From the IMG/VR virus record IMGVR_UViG_3300035193_000067, positions 62,001-126,000 of that record: a stretch of DNA of 64,000 nucleotides; one strand, given 5' to 3'. Made by a program: the position numbers and the translations under genes. Below are positions 11,418 to 21,596 of this stretch, in pieces. Position 1 is the stretch's first letter; every line of letters starts with the position of its first letter. Under the pieces are notes generated by a model. That model was not told where the DNA came from. It did no database searches and saw nothing but the letters and a program-made list of their open reading frames with translations. The DNA is from a virus.

Positions 11418-12215
11418 TTACCCCAAAGGATTCATAAAAACAGAGCTTAAGTTGGAAGATACTGTCGTATAAATTGCATCCATGGAAGGCATGGAAGACA
11501 GTACAGTAAAACCGAAGCTATAACGGACATTAAAAGGAGACGTAGCATCGTCAGTGAAATCAAGAACATTGTTGAAGTGACCAATAAAAGTTACAAATGT
11601 ATTTGCAAAAGCAGGACTACTGTATGAAATAAAGTACTGAATAGGCACTTTGGTGTATGGATCAATCATCGGTTCCCTCGTGAGAGAGTACAAATTGTAG
11701 AAGTTGCTTAAACGGGCAGCGCCTGATACGCTGTAACCACCACCTTTTAACGCCACTGCCAACTGAGTAGAAGAAACACTGCGATTCTCTGCAGCAATGT
11801 TGTTTATCTCGTCTACAGCCTGAGTCTTTTCTCCAGTAATTTTGTTCCAGAGATAACCAAGAGCTTCGGAAGCCCCGTTATTAACGGTACCAAAATTTAC
11901 GCCAATATTACCAGTCTGTCCTGTAAACTCCATACTGAGTATGTCATTGTTCCGACCATCTTTATTTGTCCAATGGTAAAAGACAGATCCTGCCTGAGTG
12001 TCTCTTCTAGTAGTCCTTTTTGCCTGAACAAAATGAACAGAAGAAGGATTCATCAGCATGCTTACACCAGGGATTCCGTTAGCCTGGCGATAGCTTGACG
12101 TGAGGTAGAAAGGTACCCTTATGGACTTATCTCCGTAGGGTGACAATGATCTCTCCAGCACCATGGAAAAATCTGAAACAAGAGTATCTCTTTCAAATGT
12201 ATTAGTAACTGCCAT
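11418..12215 (-). CDS. Tube-to-hub adaptor / baseplate hub-associated protein
   Basis: A 265-aa protein with the segment MLMNPSSVHFVQAKRTTRRD followed by GSVFYHWTNKDGRNNDILSMEFTGQTG. This pattern (hydrophobic, NPxS, basic RTxRxT, W, then G-TG) occurs in proteins encoded between tape measure and hub in many contractile phages, where they cap or adapt the tail tube. The C-terminus carries a YFISYSSPAFANTFVTFIGHF beta segment like tube domains. The start codon overlaps the tape-measure stop. Family match is from memory of the pattern and position. Confidence 0.55.
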   Translation of the reverse strand: MAVTNTFERDTLVSDFSMVLERSLSPYGDKSIRVPFYLTSSYRQANGIPGVSMLMNPSSVHFVQAKRTTRRDTQAGSVFYHWTNKDGRNNDILSMEFTGQTGNIGVNFGTVNNGASEALGYLWNKITGEKTQAVDEINNIAAENRSVSSTQLAVALKGGGYSVSGAARLSNFYNLYSLTREPMIDPYTKVPIQYFISYSSPAFANTFVTFIGHFNNVLDFTDDATSPFNVRYSFGFTVLSSMPSMDAIYTTVSSNLSSVFMNPLG

Positions 12216-14989
12216 TATAAACCACTTTCCGTAACAGGAGCCTTAAACGAAGTATCCTCAGATTTGTATAAGTTTTGATCAATCCATTCTTCAGGATTGG
12301 ACACTCTACTCTCTTCAGAGGACTTCTCTCCAACTTTTGACGTATCAACCCCCAACCAAGGGTGTTTTTTCCTGACATCAACATGCACAAAAGGAGTATT
12401 AGTGTAGTAACCAAGACCTCCTTTTTTAGTTCCGTAACCTTTCTCATAGAGAGTTCTAAACACGTCCTCTTTTGACACACCCTCTACTCCCAGATCAAGC
12501 GCTTTACCTGTGGCATGCACGCCTTTATTACCTTCTTCACCCACCCGTTCAGAGCTGTACAACTTGATAGCTTTCCCTGGGTACGCTGCAGCCAATACTT
12601 TCAAAGGTGCCTTTAGTGCAGGATCGAGAGGATCCAATTCCTGACCAGATTCTTGAATTTCCTGCTTTCTTTTCTTAGACATTTCAAGTTCTTTTACCCG
12701 ACTCATCGCATCAGAAGAATCCAAATTGATGTACTGAGATTCCCCTGGTTTCTTTGTGGATTTAAATTTAATTCCAGTTGCTTTATCCCAGTCATCCATG
12801 TAAGACCCTTCATCAAAACCTTCATCATAATCAAGACCGCACCTGGGGCACTGACCGGTTAAGGCCAAATGAATAGATCCTGAGTCATCTACTCCATAGG
12901 ACACTATCTGAAGAGGTTCTGTTCCCTTCCAGTAGTCCATCGCGAGCTTGGCAGGACCATAAGGGTTCCTGGCATAAGCAGCTTTGGCGGCTTCATACTC
13001 AGGTACTTCCACAGAAGCTACAGCAGGACCTGACTGAGGTACGTACACAGTCCTTACAGTTGGAGGAGCTGCTATTACTACACCAGGAGAAGTGCCTCTG
13101 CCAATACCCATATTACTTCTGATAGCTTCCCTGTCTGATACAGCTGCCTTATGGGTATCTATCGACAAATCTGTACTGAATGCACTCTTAAGGTTTTTGA
13201 TGGACTGCCCAAAAGCGTCCCCCATCAAAGAGATACCTGCATCAACCAAGCCTTTAAACCCACGCTCAATCAGATCTGTTGAGGATTTGGTATTACCTAC
13301 CGTCTTTTCTATCGATCTTATAATTGCATCACGACGGGCAGATCCACCTTTTTCAAAAAACGTCCCAAACATCTCCGGGACATATCTCCAGAACAAAATC
13401 ATCTTGGACAGAGCATTTGCAACAAGACCCATTAAACCCATTCCTATATGAGAAATATGCTTCATCCACTTATTCATATCTCTTTCCCACTGAGTTCTTT
13501 TTTGAGCCTCTGTCTTATAAGAGTTTCTAAGATTTTTAAAAGCTTCTTTAGAAGCCTCGGCAGCCTTTTCCTTAGCTTCACTGGATTTTGTTGGATCCTT
13601 CTCTATAAGACTGTTTTGATAAACTTCCCAAGCTAAAGTAGCTCCTTCAGCACTCATTCCTATATCTGACTGCTGGAGTTTATGTTTAGTAGTATATTCG
13701 TCTTTAAAATACTCTACGAACTTTTTAACAACACCAGTAACAAATTTTTGAAGAGCTTCCGGATCCCCTTTATTCTCAGACAGACGAGACCAAGTCTCTT
13801 GAAAATTAATTAACGCCTCTAACCCAGTTCCCATACCCAAACTCTCAGCAATCTCAGTTTTCCACCCTTCAGACATCCCTTGAATACCTGAAGAGATTCC
13901 TTTTATGCCTTTGTTGATTAACGCAGCTCCTATAAATTTAGGGATATACAGACTGTCAAAATGTTCCTGCATATTAGCCATAAATTCTGCAGTAGTTTGA
14001 ACATTGAATCCCAGTTTCTCTGTTTCTACGGAAGCGTCTTTGACAGATTCATAAAATTTGGAATAACCAAGACCTGTTGTAGTACCCAGTACAAGAGATC
14101 TGTTCAGGTAATCGGTAGACTCCTTCAAAGACATCCCAAATCTGTGCTGGTTATCAACCATGTCTCTGGCAGTTGATCCTCCAGCAATGTTAAGCAGCTT
14201 GTCAACGCCTAACGAGAGAGTGTGGAAGTTTTTTCCAACTAAACCAAGGTCTCTATCTGCAGACTGACTCCACTCAGCAGTAGCTATACCGCCTTTAACC
14301 ATTTCTGAAAGAGCTGCCTGATATTCCTGTCTGCTGATTCCGTAGAACTTCTGAAGAGATTCCTGTACTGCTGCTACAGTTCTCTGAGCCTTTCCCTGCA
14401 GCTTCTTTAAATGCCCATCTGACGCCATTACCAGAATGTCTGATACTTCACCAGCCTCAGCCTGTAAACGCTGTCTCTCGGCAACACCATAAGCGATTAG
14501 ACCTATAAGACCAGCACCTACAGCACCAAGAACAGGAAGTTTCAAAGAGTTAAGAAAACCCTTTAATTTAAATTTTACAGACTCAACCTCTTTATTAGGC
14601 TTACGTTTCTCTTTCTTGGGAACTTTCAGCTGCTTTCTTTTATCAGAGTTCTTCTTGTCCTTTAGATCTCCGGAAACTGCAGAGAAATGATCAGACAATT
14701 TATTAACAGATTCAGAAAACTTGTCCACTTCAGGAGTACTGATGGAAGACATTGTGTCGAGGATAGAATCAACTTTAGACATCTGTTCCATTACGGTATC
14801 AGCAAATGAAGAAACTTTATGTAGTTCATCCTGTGAAATTACACTCTTCATCAGTTCCGTTAATTTCTCTGTCTGCAGGTAGATGCTGTTAAAGTACTCA
14901 TCATTCTGACGTGATAAATCAGAAAGAACTGCCCCTGTACTGGACAATAAGTACTTCATCTCCTCAAGTTTTTCCAGATCAACTATCAC
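12215..14989 (-). CDS. Second tape-measure-like tail protein with C-terminal M15-type peptidase domain
   Basis: A 924-aa protein starting at GTG 14989 inside the stop of the preceding tape measure (GTGA overlap). The N-terminus is coiled coil, a KKEKRKPNK basic patch follows, and residues about 147-168 are hydrophobic (LPVLGAVGAGLIGLIAYGVA). From AERQRL through FYGISRQEYQAALSEMVKGG and LSLGVDKLLNIAGGST it is clearly paralogous to the upstream tape measure. Residues about 780-880 form a peptidase-M15-like domain with H825-x6-D832 (GVHATGKALDLG) and HVD at 869-871, the zinc-binding pattern of D-Ala-D-Ala or L-Ala-D-Glu peptidases. This would cut peptidoglycan at the tail tip during entry. A CPRCG pair near residue 705 may bind zinc. 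Confidence 0.8.
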   Translation of the reverse strand: MIVDLEKLEEMKYLLSSTGAVLSDLSRQNDEYFNSIYLQTEKLTELMKSVISQDELHKVSSFADTVMEQMSKVDSILDTMSSISTPEVDKFSESVNKLSDHFSAVSGDLKDKKNSDKRKQLKVPKKEKRKPNKEVESVKFKLKGFLNSLKLPVLGAVGAGLIGLIAYGVAERQRLQAEAGEVSDILVMASDGHLKKLQGKAQRTVAAVQESLQKFYGISRQEYQAALSEMVKGGIATAEWSQSADRDLGLVGKNFHTLSLGVDKLLNIAGGSTARDMVDNQHRFGMSLKESTDYLNRSLVLGTTTGLGYSKFYESVKDASVETEKLGFNVQTTAEFMANMQEHFDSLYIPKFIGAALINKGIKGISSGIQGMSEGWKTEIAESLGMGTGLEALINFQETWSRLSENKGDPEALQKFVTGVVKKFVEYFKDEYTTKHKLQQSDIGMSAEGATLAWEVYQNSLIEKDPTKSSEAKEKAAEASKEAFKNLRNSYKTEAQKRTQWERDMNKWMKHISHIGMGLMGLVANALSKMILFWRYVPEMFGTFFEKGGSARRDAIIRSIEKTVGNTKSSTDLIERGFKGLVDAGISLMGDAFGQSIKNLKSAFSTDLSIDTHKAAVSDREAIRSNMGIGRGTSPGVVIAAPPTVRTVYVPQSGPAVASVEVPEYEAAKAAYARNPYGPAKLAMDYWKGTEPLQIVSYGVDDSGSIHLALTGQCPRCGLDYDEGFDEGSYMDDWDKATGIKFKSTKKPGESQYINLDSSDAMSRVKELEMSKKRKQEIQESGQELDPLDPALKAPLKVLAAAYPGKAIKLYSSERVGEEGNKGVHATGKALDLGVEGVSKEDVFRTLYEKGYGTKKGGLGYYTNTPFVHVDVRKKHPWLGVDTSKVGEKSSEESRVSNPEEWIDQNLYKSEDTSFKAPVTESGL

Positions 14990-17358
14990 GGAGTTCGCCC
15001 CACTCTTCTCTGATTGCGTATCATGTCAGACTTGTCAAGGTCTCCTGCATTTATTACTGCAGTTACTCCTTTTTTTACCTTCTTAGATAGACTATCTTTT
15101 GAGACAGATCCTTTCATCGTAGGACCTTCCCATCTTTTTGCAGAATCATATGCCACGTCAGTAGCTTTCTGTCTCTGTTGTTCCCGAGCCTTAACCGCAC
15201 TATCTGATAAAACACCTGTCTTGTTTAGCACAACATCTGCAAGAAACTCTACCCGATCAGTCAAGGATCTCATTAGCATATCTCTCTCTGTCTGAGAGCT
15301 CATTAGGTTGTCTACAGCCTCTTTAGTATCCTTTACGGTGTTCCACATGCTTGTCCAGTTTACAGATCCTACATCAGCTGTAGCAGCCCTCTTAATACTA
15401 CCTAACTGGTCAATTATAGAGATCGTATCACCTAATGCTGAAGCAACGTTTTTGTAACCTTCAATGATCTTAGAAACAGCATCAGACATTCCTTCAAAAA
15501 AAGTGCTTTGAGTCTGCCCTATCTTATCAATGTTCCCAAATGCAGCGTTACGATCTTCCTTGGATGCAGTGGGATCTAAAGCAGTTACTGCTGCATGAAC
15601 CAATGGAGGAATCGACCTGATTCCCAGTATTAAAGTTGCCAGGATATTTGATACCAGATTAAGAAGACCTTCACCCACCTTGGCAAGTCCATCGATAAGA
15701 TCTCTCTGATTCTTCTGGAGCTGTGTTAATTGCGATCCTTCAATGTTAAACGTCTGTTTCCACTGCTTTTCCTGTTCAGGGGTCATAGGAGCCAAACCTT
15801 CAGGTGTTCTGTTGGCATTGTAGTAATCAACAATACCTTGAGCCTGTAGACTGCTTAAGCCGTAGCCACCTTTAAGTATATGCTTTCTATCGTATACACT
15901 CTTAGCCCCTGCGGTTGCGTCTGTATTAAGCCATTCAATTAAACTAAGCAGTGCTCCTGAAGATTCTCCACCTCCTTGCAAAAAAAGCTCCTCCATTCTT
16001 ACAAGAGCTTCATGACCTTTTGTTGAATAATCTTTTCCTTGTTTTTTCTTAAAGTAATAAATAGCAAAAGCCTGCTTCTGAGACTCGCTCATACCCCCAA
16101 AAACACCGCCCATTCCTTCAGTGACCTTCGCAGATAAAGCTCCTGCCTGAGCCTCTCCCATACCCATATCTTCATAAGTTTTCTTCAACCCCTTCATCAC
16201 AGACGCTACTTCAGACATATCAACCCTATACTGCATCAGCGATGATTGGCCTGACAGTATTGAATTAACAAACTTGTCCATAGACATACCAGATCGTTGA
16301 GCCTCATAATTAAGCATCTTCAGTTGCTCAACAGCCCCTCCGATAGTACCTCCAAATTCCTGTACAAGTTTATCCGCCTGCTTTATCGTAGTACCGGCAG
16401 CCTGGTTGAATGCTTTATCGAGTGCTAAGGATTGTGTAAGAATGTTTGCATTAACATCCGACACAGACTTGTTAAAGTCAGACATTGACAACTCTGCAGC
16501 GTGTCCTCCTTTAACAATAGCCTCCATAACAGACTGGATCTCTTTACGCCCGATCCCGTAATGGTACTGAGCCTTCTCCTGAAAATTGGAAGCCCATTTT
16601 ACAGCCTGTTGAGATGTCTTCTCAAAGAGGTTTCCTGCCGCCTCATACGCGTTAGCCATCTCCCCTCTCTGAGCACCCTTGCGCTGCCTCTCCTGAACAC
16701 CCATCACCATGGAGCTTATCAAAGCTAAAGCACCCATACCCAAGAAACCAGTGCCGAGAGCTCCCCCACTAAAACCGCTGAGCATCCCACTTATTTTTGA
16801 CTTGGCAGTTTTAAGCTCTTTTACAAGATATCCCCCAATTTTCTTGGCAGAGTCTTTCCAGGACTTTTCAGCCTTCTTTGATTCTTCTATGGCTTTTTTG
16901 GCAGCCCTGCTAACAGCCTCTGCAGTAGCTAAAGACTTCTGCAGCTCTTCAACGTTCTGAGCACCACCTGAGATACTAAAATTAAAACCCTGACCACCTG
17001 CCGCAGCACCTGCAGGAACGTTGGATCCGTTTGATTTCAGATTAAAATCACCAAGAACTTTTAACTGATTGTGAAGACTTTTTGCATTACTGTCAATTTC
17101 TGAAAACAGCTGGGAAGATGTCTCAAGTCTGGAGAGAAATGAAGTATAAAAAGTATCCAGCTTTGAATAGGAAGAATCCAGAGCTGATGAGATATTTACC
17201 ACCTTGTTTTCGATATCTGTCAAGGAAGTGTTAATATCTCGGGATGTCTGCTGTACTCCGGAGGTGAATACACTGTATGCAGCCTGGAGCTCTGCCATCT
17301 GCCTGGTGAGCTCCTGTACATCGAACGAAAGAACGTATTGAGTATCTAAGTCTGCCAC
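14986..17358 (-). CDS. Tape measure protein (first of two paralogues)
   Basis: A 790-aa protein starting at GTG 17358 (TAGTG overlap with the chaperone stop). It has an N-terminal coiled-coil region, an Ala/Lys helix, a glycine-rich hydrophobic segment (about residues 190-220, SGFSGGALGTGFLGMGALALI), the VQERQR motif shared with the next gene, and a second hydrophobic stretch about residues 575-600 (NLVSNILATLILGI). Tape measures span the tube lumen and fix tail length. It directly follows the frameshifted chaperone pair, the canonical position. Confidence 0.82.
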   Translation of the reverse strand: MADLDTQYVLSFDVQELTRQMAELQAAYSVFTSGVQQTSRDINTSLTDIENKVVNISSALDSSYSKLDTFYTSFLSRLETSSQLFSEIDSNAKSLHNQLKVLGDFNLKSNGSNVPAGAAAGGQGFNFSISGGAQNVEELQKSLATAEAVSRAAKKAIEESKKAEKSWKDSAKKIGGYLVKELKTAKSKISGMLSGFSGGALGTGFLGMGALALISSMVMGVQERQRKGAQRGEMANAYEAAGNLFEKTSQQAVKWASNFQEKAQYHYGIGRKEIQSVMEAIVKGGHAAELSMSDFNKSVSDVNANILTQSLALDKAFNQAAGTTIKQADKLVQEFGGTIGGAVEQLKMLNYEAQRSGMSMDKFVNSILSGQSSLMQYRVDMSEVASVMKGLKKTYEDMGMGEAQAGALSAKVTEGMGGVFGGMSESQKQAFAIYYFKKKQGKDYSTKGHEALVRMEELFLQGGGESSGALLSLIEWLNTDATAGAKSVYDRKHILKGGYGLSSLQAQGIVDYYNANRTPEGLAPMTPEQEKQWKQTFNIEGSQLTQLQKNQRDLIDGLAKVGEGLLNLVSNILATLILGIRSIPPLVHAAVTALDPTASKEDRNAAFGNIDKIGQTQSTFFEGMSDAVSKIIEGYKNVASALGDTISIIDQLGSIKRAATADVGSVNWTSMWNTVKDTKEAVDNLMSSQTERDMLMRSLTDRVEFLADVVLNKTGVLSDSAVKAREQQRQKATDVAYDSAKRWEGPTMKGSVSKDSLSKKVKKGVTAVINAGDLDKSDMIRNQRRVGRTP

Positions 17359-17969
17359 TACTTAATCCGGAAGGTTGAAGATCTCCTGCGCTCCCCTTCC
17401 ACTACGGAAGGATTACTCTCATTTAGTATATCATCCTTTTGGTTCATAGGCTTAACCATATGCTTAAGAATTTCCTTATTCTCGAATGATTCCCATTTAA
17501 GTTTCTTTTCAAGCTCTTCAGGATCATCGGGGAATATCAAATCATCATCCTGCATAAACTCGTCAAGCTCTTCAGGAGTCATCATAACAATCTTGCCTGA
17601 CTCTTCCTTCTCTTCAAGCTCTTCCTGCTTCTGCAGCTCTGCATGAGATTCAGCCACTTTACTAAGTACTGCATCATTTCCGCAAAGAAACGCCAGAGGA
17701 GTTATTTCATTCTCGTCAGGCTTACGCAGTCTGGTATAAGTGTTACCCTCTTCATCCACAAGACTCTCTTCAACAGGTATGGTATTTAGACCCAACATGT
17801 CTATAAGAGAATTACGAGATACTTTCATGATCGAAGAAATATCCTCATACTTCCGCTTGTCTCGCTCAACCAAACCCAGCAGCTCAAAGTTCCACTGAGT
17901 GGAATTCATTCTCTGAGCTGCAGGATCACTGATTAAAATTCTCTTACGTGAAAGAACTTCAGATTTCAC
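17358..17969 (-). CDS. Tail assembly chaperone, second part, expressed by -1 frameshift
   Basis: The frame is open from 18077 down to the stop at 17358, so it overlaps the upstream chaperone gene. A GTG at 17969 is the first start-like codon, but it has no ribosome site, which argues against independent initiation. Ribosomes shifting -1 on the A-AAA-AAG sequence at 18062-18056 would produce a 397-aa fusion (165 residues of the first frame plus 232 of this one). The protein is acidic and helical (EELEEKEESG, TPEELDEFMQDDDL) with an HTH-like SSIMKVSRNSLIDMLGL segment. In lambda-like and other long-tailed phages the equivalent G-GT fusion loads tape measure and tail subunits. Placement between tube and tape measure fits exactly. 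Confidence 0.75.
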   Translation of the reverse strand: MKSEVLSRKRILISDPAAQRMNSTQWNFELLGLVERDKRKYEDISSIMKVSRNSLIDMLGLNTIPVEESLVDEEGNTYTRLRKPDENEITPLAFLCGNDAVLSKVAESHAELQKQEELEEKEESGKIVMMTPEELDEFMQDDDLIFPDDPEELEKKLKWESFENKEILKHMVKPMNQKDDILNESNPSVVEGERRRSSTFRIK

Positions 17970-18013
17970 ACGTATGGTGGAACAGATTTTTGGCCATTCC
18001 GGAAAAGTTTCAT

Positions 18014-18550
18014 TCAGCTCTCTTCCGTACTCTTCTCCGAACTCTCCGGTAAGGACTTTTTTACGGATGCCTGCATATCATTCTGTCGCTTCTGAAGCTC
18101 TCCCCATTTTGTATACAGATCATTCAAAAATGTAGAAGGTTGCTGCCCAAGCCATTCATAGAATAATTTGCAAAGTAAGTATTTTCCTTCAAAACCATCA
18201 TACGGAGACAGGAACTTACTCAACTCATCCTTTTCTTCCTGCTTAAGAGTCTCGAAGTGATCGTAGTACCGGGTACGTTTACTGAGAATCTCATCAAGAT
18301 CCTCCTGAAAGATTTCTTCAATGCTGCACCCGTTAATGCTGCGGATACCTACTGCGAGAGTTGCAACACGGGCTGTCAACGTAAGAGTGACTGTATTCTT
18401 GCTGTCTATGATATTGTATGACCAGGCAGCCTCTGAGTCAGTGAGAAGTTTCATCTCATAAGATCTGCCATTAATCTCGTAAGTTTCACACAACAACTGT
18501 CCCTGCAGTTCTGCATTCAGATCCAGTAAAATTTGCTTGGCTTTTGACAT
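18014..18550 (-). CDS. Tail assembly chaperone, first part (gpG-like)
   Basis: A 178-aa protein begins MSKAKQILLDLNAELQGQLL and is predicted mixed alpha/beta, with a helical C-terminal half ending in SLPESSEKSTEES. It lies between the tail tube and tape measure genes, the conserved position of tail assembly chaperones. A classic slippery heptamer in frame near its 3' end lets part of the ribosomes enter the next frame. Chaperone identity is inferred from context and the frameshift architecture, because these proteins diverge fast. Confidence 0.7.
   Translation of the reverse strand: MSKAKQILLDLNAELQGQLLCETYEINGRSYEMKLLTDSEAAWSYNIIDSKNTVTLTLTARVATLAVGIRSINGCSIEEIFQEDLDEILSKRTRYYDHFETLKQEEKDELSKFLSPYDGFEGKYLLCKLFYEWLGQQPSTFLNDLYTKWGELQKRQNDMQASVKKSLPESSEKSTEES
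18056..18062 (-). other. Slippery heptamer A-AAA-AAG for -1 programmed frameshift
   Basis: Minus-strand codons of the first chaperone frame read GTA AAA AAG, so the heptamer A AAA AAG is in the correct register, as in E. coli dnaX. The -1 frame beyond it is open through 17358. A candidate 8-bp stem (18027-18020 with 18007-18000) lies 28 bases downstream, further than usual, so the stimulator is uncertain. Confidence 0.75.
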
Positions 18551-18658: not shown

Positions 18659-19108
18659 CTAGGAAACTCTGTACTTTTTAACGTACATGAGAGATGCATT
18701 AACTTTAGTAATGCGATCCCCTTGAGCAGAGTGGTTACGGCCAAGAGAAGTGAACCAGCAGCCTGAGTACACCCATACCTCTGGAGTCCCGTTAGGTTTA
18801 AGCCATTTTTCCTGAATCTGTATAGGGTTGGTCTGATCAGTAAGCATCTGAATAGAAAAGTCAGGTCCCCACACATCTTCCATTTTGGAAGTATACAGAT
18901 CATAGCGATTGACAGTAATATTCAATCCTGTGATATTACCAGGAACGTTCTCATAAACTTCACCGGATGTAGCAGAATTGAGCTCATACGTATGAGTAAC
19001 AGTTCTGTTCTGTTGAGGGTTCCAATCCTGTATCTGACCAATTGTCTTACCGCTCACCCTAATGGATAGAGCATGATCAGTTCTAGTGGCTGTATTTGGC
19101 AAAGGCAT
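18659..19108 (-). CDS. Tail tube protein
   Basis: A 149-aa protein of the size and layout of contractile-tail tube subunits. N-terminus MPLPNTATRTDHALSIRVSG, then IGQIQDWNPQQNRTVTHTYEL, a G-EVYENVPGNITGLNITVNRYDLY segment typical of XkdM/gp19-like tubes, and a C-terminal strand (ITKVNASLMYVKKYRVS). It follows the sheath gene by ten bases and precedes the chaperones, the standard order. The tube forms the inner channel through which DNA passes. A 108-base gap follows before the chaperone gene and contains a GGAAATTTCC palindrome but no convincing terminator. Confidence 0.85.
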   Translation of the reverse strand: MPLPNTATRTDHALSIRVSGKTIGQIQDWNPQQNRTVTHTYELNSATSGEVYENVPGNITGLNITVNRYDLYTSKMEDVWGPDFSIQMLTDQTNPIQIQEKWLKPNGTPEVWVYSGCWFTSLGRNHSAQGDRITKVNASLMYVKKYRVS

Positions 19109-19118
19109 TTATATCTCC

Positions 19119-21596
19119 TTAGTTAGTGTAGAACGGATTATCGACACTATATTCACCGAAAAATCTCTTGGCTACGTACTTAAGATTGAACCAATATCTG
19201 AACACAAAACTACGAGGATCGTTCTCATCCTGGTACGCTTCAATATCTGTTAGCAAATCGATGTCACGTGTAGATCCGTTGGGATTTCTGTAAGTACCAA
19301 TATCTCTGTTTGAGATTGATCCTTTAATCGCAATGGAAATCCATGTTTTAATGTCAGTAATAAAATCTGCGAGATCATCAGGAACAACACCTTTTACATT
19401 CCCATCCAACGCCCTGGCAACCGCACGAGTAACAGCATCCTTCTGAGAAGAAGAGGAGATCTCTTCAAACTGTACAACTTTAGCCCCACCTGCTTCAGTT
19501 GTAAGAGGATCAATCAGAGTCAGGTTACCTGCTTCATTGGTCACAACAGTTACGCCATTACCTGCCAGAGTATAACGCTGACCTTGCAGATAAGTCTGAA
19601 AAGTGCTGTCAGTGAGGAATCCTGTAACAGTCTTGTTCAACAAAGCCTCTGAAGGACCTGAGAGGCTGCAGAATCTTGCAGCAACAGCTGTAGCAAGGTA
19701 ACTTCCATCAAGCTGTACAGTAACCTCTGTAGCGTCTTCCAGAACCAGTGTACGAGATACGTTGGCAGGAGCTACAAGGATCTGACGACCTCTACCGGAG
19801 GAAGTGTTACCTGGTTGAAGAGTTCTGGTAGCTCTATATACGAATGTATCAGGCGTATCAGGATCTCCAACAGCGGTATCACGTGCCATACCATACCAAC
19901 CACGACGATATTTCTTTTCAGTGATAGAACTCATGGAAGAAACATGATTCATCAGGTATACTGCCTGAGCTTCTGCGGTATCAATAACAACTAAATCAGT
20001 AATTCCGGATTTTTCACGACATACATCAATAGCTGCATTTACCTGTGAAGGAGTCGGGTACCCTGGAGCAGTTGAGTCATTAATCTGAGTGATGTACAGA
20101 GCAGAGATACCATTCTCAAAAGCAATCTCACCAGCTACAGCAAGCTCATTACGAGGGTAGTTGGCCAGAGTTAAAGGAGAGCAGTAATCATACAGCTGAT
20201 CAGGTGTGTAAACAATATTTGAAGTAGCGTAATCCGTGCTGGGGCGGGTATAATCATACGAGGAGTAGAACACTGTACCAAAGTTAGGACGGTTACCGGT
20301 ACCTGAGATTTCATAAGGGAGGGAGCTGGAAGCTATCCCGAAGATATCAGTTACACCAGAAGTGGTTCCTTCGAATAAAGAAATAGAGGATGCCGCACCT
20401 TTGGAAGAAGGTGTATCAGTAAACATTGCAGGAGCTGTCAGATTGACAGCAGAGCCACTTACTGAAGCAACATGACCATACAAAGGACCGTAAGAAGCAG
20501 ATGCAGTAAAAGCTGCATTAATATCAGCTACAACATCAGCAGCTGCAGGATTAGGGAGATTGGTGGTCAATGTGACAGTTATAGGATCGATGTTGTTGAA
20601 ACCTATTTTCAGATCTGTACCTGTTGCAGTAAAGACACCATCAAGTCCCGTAATAGTAGCATCCGTCCATGAAGTAGTATCCCAATCAAGATAATTGCCG
20701 TTAGCTTCATAGTCATAATTCTGAGTATAACTGGAAGATCCAGGATATGCACCAACAAACAGGATAGAGCTTAAAGGAGTTGCTGTAGCAGTGTTGGATA
20801 ATACATCAAGAAGCATATCCACAGCTACATAATCAATAGTGTAGGTATCAGACGAGCTGTACAGTGCGTCATTGACACGAACTACAGTAGAGGATTGAAC
20901 TCCTGCACCAGTAGTAGGAGCCCATGCAGTATTGGATACTTCAGAAGCAGCATCAGCAGCTGCAGGAGATGACAAAATAACCTTAATGTCAGAAGTTGAA
21001 TCAGTAGCTACCCCGTTAAGAGTAATAACCGGATACGTGACACCTGTAGCAGAAGAAGCAAATGCACTGTAGGAAGATCCATACAAAGGACTTGCAACCA
21101 AACCTGCATTAATGGCAGCAGCAATATTGGCACCACTTGCTGTAGCAGGAGTACCACCGACTGAAGTAACCAAGGCATCTAGATCCAGTTTAATGAAACC
21201 TTTATTATCTGCATTCAACGAAAGGTATTGAGCTGTTCCTGTTCCTGAAGATACGTCTATTGTTGCAGCAGCCCATTCATCGCCTACGAGAGTTGCAGCA
21301 ACAAAACTCCAATCACCAAGACCCAGTGCATTACTGTTCCTGTAAAGAACTGCCTGGGTACGATCTCGGTTGGAAGTATTGGAAAGAGTAGCTACATAAG
21401 GAGTGGAGGTTGAGAGAGTCAAAGACTCATTGTATACCTTACCTCGTACAATAGCTTCATCATTCGCTCTACGCGTCCGTGGTGCAATAGCAACAATACC
21501 CAGTGTTCTCTCTGATGTAATAGAGACAGCACCAGGCTGTACTTTTTCTCGAATATATGTTCCTGGGTCAACATACCCATTAACTCCAAAAGCCAT
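19119..21596 (-). CDS. Contractile tail sheath protein
   Basis: An 825-aa protein with the sheath signatures: N-terminal PGTYIREKVQPGAVSITSER, the middle TDLVVIDTAEAQAVYLMNHV region, and the C-terminal domain from RSFVFRYWFNLKYVAKRFFGEYSVDN. It is longer than T4 gp18 (659 aa) because of beta insertions. Two insertions (about residues 130-225 and 318-422) share the pattern IAAAINAG...LYGSSYSAFAS / VVADINAAF...YGPLYGHVAS with the hook IN motif and recur in two other structural genes here. A late-class promoter lies 67 bases or so upstream of its start. Confidence 0.9.
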   Translation of the reverse strand: MAFGVNGYVDPGTYIREKVQPGAVSITSERTLGIVAIAPRTRRANDEAIVRGKVYNESLTLSTSTPYVATLSNTSNRDRTQAVLYRNSNALGLGDWSFVAATLVGDEWAAATIDVSSGTGTAQYLSLNADNKGFIKLDLDALVTSVGGTPATASGANIAAAINAGLVASPLYGSSYSAFASSATGVTYPVITLNGVATDSTSDIKVILSSPAAADAASEVSNTAWAPTTGAGVQSSTVVRVNDALYSSSDTYTIDYVAVDMLLDVLSNTATATPLSSILFVGAYPGSSSYTQNYDYEANGNYLDWDTTSWTDATITGLDGVFTATGTDLKIGFNNIDPITVTLTTNLPNPAAADVVADINAAFTASASYGPLYGHVASVSGSAVNLTAPAMFTDTPSSKGAASSISLFEGTTSGVTDIFGIASSSLPYEISGTGNRPNFGTVFYSSYDYTRPSTDYATSNIVYTPDQLYDYCSPLTLANYPRNELAVAGEIAFENGISALYITQINDSTAPGYPTPSQVNAAIDVCREKSGITDLVVIDTAEAQAVYLMNHVSSMSSITEKKYRRGWYGMARDTAVGDPDTPDTFVYRATRTLQPGNTSSGRGRQILVAPANVSRTLVLEDATEVTVQLDGSYLATAVAARFCSLSGPSEALLNKTVTGFLTDSTFQTYLQGQRYTLAGNGVTVVTNEAGNLTLIDPLTTEAGGAKVVQFEEISSSSQKDAVTRAVARALDGNVKGVVPDDLADFITDIKTWISIAIKGSISNRDIGTYRNPNGSTRDIDLLTDIEAYQDENDPRSFVFRYWFNLKYVAKRFFGEYSVDNPFYTN

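What the first reader, a model, noticed from the sequence alone, without database searches (positions are those of the whole stretch)
12215..17358. Tandem duplicated tape-measure genes, the second ending in a peptidoglycan peptidase
The two adjacent large tail proteins share ERQR..., FYGI/HYGI-R-E, SEMVKGG/EAIVKGG and matching helices over roughly 150 residues. One has a C-terminal M15-like peptidase domain (H825, D832, H869 with VHVD) and the other not. Two tape measures in tandem with shared start/stop codons suggest one sets the length and the other is an entry device, or they form a mixed lumen bundle.
Basis: partly seen in the sequence, partly recalled or inferred. Interest (0 to 1): 0.6.

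Follow-up and report, generated by a model that had tools for sequence, protein, structure and literature searches.

The report
Duplicated tape measures, one with peptidase
This uncultured phage builds its tail around two related tape-measure proteins instead of one, and its relatives have one, two or three such genes (never more in 25 records), with the cell-wall-cutting enzyme always on the last copy, which suggests that the usual three-stranded bundle inside the tail can be made of different strands.

Summary
The two adjacent proteins (TMP1, window 14986-17358; TMP2, 12215-14989, both minus strand) are paralogous over about 500-590 residues (BLASTP 4e-25; profile-profile 1.6e-56). Both predicted folds match phage tape-measure proteins. 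Only TMP2 has a C-terminal M15 peptidase domain, and the named residues H825, D832, H869 and VHVD are present.

The pair is part of an expanding family. Whole-record searches of 25 relatives found one TMP gene in 10 records, two in 8 and three in 7. The tree shows an old duplication separating the enzyme-bearing last copy from the rest, a second duplication giving triples, and a probably independent triple (L049). The enzyme occurs only on the last copy: SleB-type in 12, M15 in two (this window, L065), a weak transglycosylase-like match in L049.

Published structures show TMP as a trimer, including in contractile phages Mu and 812. The best reading is a mixed three-stranded TMP bundle in which TMP2 contributes the wall-cutting tip. 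Paralogy and enzyme placement are shown; co-assembly and stoichiometry are inferred. Tail-tube genes also vary from one to three copies, so the ceiling of three is only suggestive. New variant of a known kind.

The parts
14986..17358 (-). TMP1: 790-aa tape-measure paralog without enzyme domain (GTG start)
   Evidence: ORF; homologous to TMP2; predicted fold matches phage tape-measure proteins in BFVD, best named matches about E 5e-6
12215..14989 (-). TMP2: 924-aa tape-measure paralog with C-terminal M15 peptidase (GTG start, 4-nt overlap with TMP1 stop)
   Evidence: ORF; BFVD matches to tape-measure proteins at E about 1e-6; Pfam M15
15415..16821 (-). TMP1 shared core (residues about 180-648)
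   Evidence: region aligned with TMP2 by BLASTP; best-predicted part of the model, pLDDT mostly 75-91 from residue 210
13160..14593 (-). TMP2 shared core (residues about 133-610)
16696..16752 (-). TMP1 hydrophobic segment 1 (residues 203-221), just before the ERQR motif
   Evidence: Kyte-Doolittle mean 1.71 over 19 residues
15610..15666 (-). TMP1 hydrophobic segment 2 (residues 565-583)
   Evidence: Kyte-Doolittle mean 1.72
14483..14539 (-). TMP2 hydrophobic segment 1 (residues 151-169)
   Evidence: Kyte-Doolittle mean 1.96, same alignment column as in TMP1
13391..13447 (-). TMP2 hydrophobic segment 2 (residues 515-533)
   Evidence: Kyte-Doolittle mean 1.64, near the same alignment column as in TMP1
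12839..12850 (-). CPRC knuckle (TMP2 residues 714-717) in the conserved linker before the enzyme
   Evidence: CPxC present in all last-copy TMPs of pairs and triples except L049
12365..12553 (-). M15 peptidase domain match (TMP2 residues 813-875; H825, D832, H869, VHVD)
   Evidence: Pfam PF05951 E 3.2e-7; residues checked; same domain in L065
17358..17969 (-). 203-aa putative tail assembly chaperone B
   Evidence: position directly before TMP1, conserved in relatives; role inferred from position
18014..18550 (-). 178-aa putative tail assembly chaperone A
   Evidence: position, conserved in relatives; role inferred from position
11418..12215 (-). 265-aa conserved protein directly after TMP2, the best marker of this lineage
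   Evidence: alignment A5; used to find relatives
18659..19108 (-). tail tube protein (single copy here)
   Evidence: phrog_985 virion structural protein E 4e-7; position after the sheath; copy number in relatives; tube role inferred
19119..21596 (-). tail sheath protein (inferred), so a contractile tail
   Evidence: C-terminal RFFGEYSVDNPFF motif, position before the tube gene, and conservation; role inferred, no library match

Best explanation
TMP1 and TMP2 come from an ancient duplication of a tape-measure gene and both remain tape measures. Both have the same helical core with two hydrophobic segments (shown). I infer that both are wrapped by the same chaperones and packed together in the tail lumen as a mixed bundle of three chains, since TMP is a trimer in solved tails. 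In phages with one gene the bundle would be three identical chains, with two genes 2:1 (most likely two TMP1 and one TMP2), and with three genes 1:1:1. TMP2 extends past the shared core into a linker and a cell-wall peptidase that would sit at the tail tip. When the tail contracts the bundle is expelled tip first, the M15 domain cuts peptidoglycan peptides, and the hydrophobic segments of both chains enter the membrane to open the DNA path. Duplication would let the phage carry, tune or swap one enzyme without putting three bulky copies in the narrow tube. Shown: paralogy, TMP-like fold, enzyme only on the last copy, enzyme exchange, copy number 1/2/3. Inferred: co-assembly, ratio, tip position, membrane insertion.
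For: Paralogy over 500-590 residues. Both models match tape-measure proteins in BFVD; relatives match PHROG tape-measure families. Copy number 1 in 10, 2 in 8, 3 in 7 of 25 records, never more, searched over whole records. TMP tree: singles on one side (100/99); enzyme-bearing last copies of pairs and six triples one clade (100/100); first copies plus a and b of triples another (100/100). The sheath tree agrees: L049 sister to the other multi-copy phages, pairs and triples inside. Enzyme only on the last copy: SleB-type in 12, M15 in 2, weak SLT in L049. The block between two conserved glycines is 179-183 residues in every copy of the pairs and the six related triples, and total core lengths within one triple lie within about 30 residues. 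Two chaperone genes whatever the TMP number, in the loci inspected. TMP trimer: JBD30 with T5 and 80alpha (PMC11445458), lambda tip (PMC10721106), contractile Mu (PMC11915804), contractile 812 (PMC12886913). A TMP enzyme motif cuts peptidoglycan in TM4 (PMC1796659).
Against: No virion, proteome or structure exists for this lineage. Tail-tube genes also range from 1 to 3 copies here although the tube is a hexamer, so a ceiling of three may reflect general duplication of tail genes. Within pairs TMP1 is 30-57 residues longer than TMP2 from the N-terminus to the second landmark, so the two need not span the same length. The independence of the L049 triple is only marginally supported (AU p 0.041). 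AlphaFold models are monomers and the rod-like ends have low confidence.
Confidence: 0.55

Rival explanations
1. Division of labour: TMP1 alone spans the tube and sets the length, while TMP2 is a tip-located pilot or lysin that kept the TMP core only as its means of loading and ejection.
For: Only TMP2 has an enzyme. TMP2's N-terminal part is 30-57 residues shorter than TMP1's in pairs. Staphylococcus and SPO1-type phages are known to carry a tape measure and a separate neighbouring tail lysin (own knowledge, not tested here).
Against: TMP2 keeps the whole shared core and both hydrophobic segments; triples add a third enzyme-free full-length copy, which this model does not need; core lengths stay close.
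Confidence: 0.22
2. Mixed hexamer: six chains fill the lumen, 6 of one kind, 3+3, or 2+2+2.
For: 1, 2 and 3 all divide six, and the tube is six-fold; the copy numbers fit as well as for a trimer.
Against: Recent structures resolve three TMP chains, also in contractile Mu and 812 (PMC11915804, PMC12886913).
Confidence: 0.1
3. Alternative tails: each particle carries a homotrimer of either TMP1 or TMP2, giving enzyme-armed and unarmed particles or two tail lengths from one genome.
For: Two complete paralogs with tightly coupled translation.
Against: Ordered copies with fixed gene order and the enzyme always last suggest fixed roles; unarmed particles would be a poor use of a last-copy enzyme.
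Confidence: 0.06
4. Redundant duplicates kept by chance, with one copy drifting out of use.
For: Phage tails tolerate duplications; the tube gene family is also expanded.
Against: Open frames intact in every complete copy checked except isolated read-through calls at alignment ends; the pair is kept in all 8 two-gene records with deep divergence, and core length is held constant.
Confidence: 0.05

Closest known systems
Tape-measure proteins with a built-in peptidoglycan hydrolase (mycobacteriophage TM4 gp17, PMC1796659; phiCbK gp95 with CHAP domain, PMC3556154)
   Same: Tape-measure core plus a cell-wall enzyme in one polypeptide.
   Different: Those phages have one such gene; here the enzyme is on one of two or three paralogs only, and its type is exchanged between relatives.
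Tape-measure trimers in solved tails (JBD30, T5, 80alpha, lambda, Mu, phage 812)
   Same: Long helical protein filling the tail tube, C-termini at the tip, ejected before DNA.
   Different: All reported ones are homo-oligomers of one gene product; here two or three gene products could share the bundle (inferred).
Virus Rctr197k (KX853510), the only annotated relative found
   Same: Sheath, capsid, portal, 265-aa neighbour and TMP are homologous and in the same order.
   Different: One 669-aa TMP gene, no enzyme domain found on it.
Separate tail lysin beside a tape measure in SPO1/Twort-type phages (own knowledge)
   Same: A tape measure followed by a neighbouring wall hydrolase gene.
   Different: Not known to me to be paralogs of each other; here the enzyme gene is itself a tape-measure paralog. 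Not tested here.

Membership tests
Phage tail tape-measure protein | Position between tail assembly chaperones and baseplate genes, downstream of sheath and tube | tested here: met
   Order sheath, tube, two putative chaperones, TMP1, TMP2, 265-aa protein, 919-aa protein, baseplate wedge (phrog_6 E 2.4e-26) in the window and the same order in relatives
Phage tail tape-measure protein | Sequence or fold similarity to known tape-measure proteins | tested here: met
   BFVD matches are dominated by tape-measure and minor tail proteins for both models; TM-scores are low (about 0.2-0.3) as expected for flexible models; weak PHROG/Pfam TMP matches in relatives, none for the window's own sequences
Phage tail tape-measure protein | Protein length sets tail length | not testable with these tools
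   No virion image or mutant; uncultured phage
Peptidase M15 (zinc D-Ala-D-Ala / L-Ala-D-Glu peptidases) | HxxxxxxD ... H zinc site and family profile match | tested here: met
   H825, D832, H869 in TMP2; PF05951 above curated cut-off, PF08291 below it; same domain above both cut-offs in L065
Peptidase M15 (zinc D-Ala-D-Ala / L-Ala-D-Glu peptidases) | Peptidoglycan peptide cleavage | not testable with these tools
   No enzyme assay
Paralogous pair | Common ancestry within the lineage rather than similarity of composition | tested here: met
   hhalign E 1.6e-56; tree with ordered clades for copies
Heteromeric tape-measure bundle | Two or more TMP species in one tail lumen in fixed ratio | not testable with these tools
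   Needs virion proteomics or cryo-EM

The most novel reading that the evidence does not exclude
The tail lumen holds a mixed tape-measure bundle of three chains encoded by one, two or three paralogous genes, with exactly one chain carrying the wall-cutting enzyme: a stepwise change from a homotrimer to a heterotrimer caught in living phage clades.
Probability: 0.42. Interest if true: 0.75.

Novelty: new variant of a known kind. Interest (0 to 1): 0.6.

Why it matters
Tape-measure proteins are treated as one gene product repeated around the tail axis. A lineage with one, two and three paralogous tape measures allows a direct test of how many chains fill the tube, whether they can differ, and why the enzyme is carried by one of them. 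If the bundle is mixed, it would be a case of symmetry lost by gene duplication inside a tube of fixed symmetry. It would also explain how phages change their wall-cutting enzyme (M15, SleB-type, possibly SLT) without touching the length-setting copy.

Tried and rejected
tblastn of either protein against 50,697 phage records found nothing, so annotated relatives had to be reached through capsid, portal, sheath and the 265-aa neighbour. Bacillus phage G shares capsid and portal similarity, but no tape-measure pair is labelled in the stretch read; not pursued. Foldseek and VIA-align against the PDB gave only generic helical matches for both models; sequence search against PDB chains gave coiled-coil noise and nothing for the M15 part. 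Core-length covariation between TMP1 and TMP2 as a test of co-assembly: lengths vary too little for any power. A link between tube copy number and TMP copy number was looked for and is absent. No cell-wall enzyme was found in the tail proteins tested from three single-TMP phages (Rctr197k, L051, L053). Literature searches for two, three, paralogous or tandem tape measures found no report of paralogous tape measures in one tail; subscription journals are not covered. SuMu's 'two tape measure proteins' are mass-spectrometry homolog matches, not such a pair.

Full report
1. The observation. Both genes are present as described: TMP1 at 14986-17358 (790 aa) and TMP2 at 12215-14989 (924 aa), minus strand, GTG starts, a 4-nt overlap between TMP1's stop and TMP2's start, and 1-nt overlaps with the genes on either side. 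The proteins are clearly homologous: BLASTP E 4e-25 over 504 residues, profile-profile E 1.8e-38 and 1.6e-56 over 587 columns. The shared part is therefore nearly all of TMP2 outside its C-terminal linker and enzyme, not 150 residues.

2. What the proteins are. The window is part of a 163-kb virus record. Gene order is sheath, tube, two putative chaperones, TMP1, TMP2, a 265-aa protein, a 919-aa protein and baseplate genes, one of which matches the PHROG baseplate wedge family at E 2.4e-26. The sheath call rests on position, conservation and the C-terminal motif, as it has no library match. AlphaFold models of both proteins retrieve tape-measure and minor tail proteins from the viral structure library. 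TMP1's core is predicted with pLDDT mostly 75-91; TMP2's core is about 60-80 and its rod-like N-terminal part is not confidently placed. Both proteins have two hydrophobic segments at about the same alignment columns. Relatives give weak matches to PHROG and Pfam tape-measure families. I take tape-measure identity as established for the core and likely for the whole protein.

3. Relatives. Neither protein has a match in 50,697 phage records. The conserved capsid, portal, 265-aa neighbour and sheath led to about 30 virus contigs and one annotated record, Virus Rctr197k. Whole-record searches of 25 of them with a TMP profile found one gene in 10, two in 8 and three in 7. In one record the match was split in two pieces of a single gene (G023), counted as one. 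No record had more than three.

4. History. In the maximum-likelihood tree of 48 TMP cores the single-gene TMPs lie on one side (100/99). The last copies of pairs and of six triples form one clade (100/100). The first copies of pairs together with the first and middle copies of triples form another (100/100), and within it the first and middle copies of triples are sister groups (98/97 for their union). So one duplication came before the split of two-gene and three-gene phages, and a second one made the triples. Record L049 also has three copies, one before and two after the 265-aa gene, and they group with each other (100/98). An AU test only marginally rejects its last copy joining the other last copies (p 0.041). 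A separate tree from the sheath gene places L049 as sister to all other multi-copy phages and the single-gene phages outside. Two independent routes to three copies are thus likely, not certain.

5. The enzyme. It is found only on the last copy. A profile made from six pair-type C-termini hits the last copies of the six triples at E 8e-16 to 5e-30 and hits no first or middle copy. Pfam names the domain Hydrolase_2 (SleB-type) where it scores well. The window and L065 have M15 instead; because their TMP cores are nearest to SleB-bearing phages (L032 and L033/L034), the C-terminal module has been exchanged at least twice, or once plus transfer. L049 has only a weak SLT match (E 0.0097). Just before the enzyme lies a conserved stretch with an invariant CPxC in all last copies except L049; its role is unknown, perhaps metal binding or an anchor to the tip. 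No enzyme was found on single-gene TMPs or on the other tail proteins tested in three of those phages.

6. Mechanism. Solved tails show three TMP chains: JBD30, T5 and 80alpha (PMC11445458), lambda tip (PMC10721106), contractile Mu (PMC11915804) and contractile 812 (PMC12886913). One, two or three paralogs, never more, with one set of two chaperone genes in the loci inspected and near-constant core lengths, fits a three-stranded bundle whose strands became separately encoded. In this phage two TMP1 and one TMP2 would fill the tube, with the single M15 domain at the tip. On contraction the bundle is expelled, the peptidase opens the wall, and hydrophobic segments help form the DNA path. In TM4 a wall-degrading motif in the TMP is dispensable but helps infection of stationary cells (PMC1796659), so the enzyme here may also be an aid rather than essential. 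The bundle composition, ratio and tip position are inference.

7. Limits. The ceiling of three rests on 25 records, many incomplete. Tube genes in the same lineage vary from one to three copies without tracking TMP number, although the tube ring is hexameric, so duplication may simply be common here. TMP1's N-terminal region is 30-57 residues longer than TMP2's in pairs, which leaves room for the rival that TMP2 sits only near the tip. No published report of paralogous tape measures in one tail was found, but only open-licence papers were searched.

8. Verdict. The duplication is real, old and part of a 1-2-3 gene series with an exchangeable enzyme on the last copy. It is a new variant of a known kind, and it makes the number and identity of the chains in the tail lumen directly testable.

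Noticed in passing
window 18659-19108; L051 4899-6553, L053 5448-7004, L056 4965-6537, L079 12530-14065: Tail tube genes are also tandemly duplicated in this lineage: one copy in the window, two in most relatives, three in several single-TMP phages. The number does not track TMP number.
   Followed up: partly
   Followed up: no
L084 (JANXME010000184.1): A single-TMP member of the lineage lies on a contig of an Actinomycetes metagenome-assembled genome, a host lead.
   Followed up: no
window 12839-12850 (TMP2 residues 714-717): Invariant CPxC motif in a conserved stretch before the exchangeable enzyme in all last-copy TMPs except L049; only one cysteine pair, so any metal site would need partners from elsewhere.
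   Followed up: partly
L049 7600-15623: The three TMP copies are split by the 265-aa neighbour gene (one before, two after), unlike all other multi-copy records.
   Followed up: partly
window 17358-18550: Two putative tail chaperone genes are separate rather than fused by an obvious frameshift overlap (44-nt gap), as described for phage 0305phi8-36 (PMC2147016).
   Followed up: no
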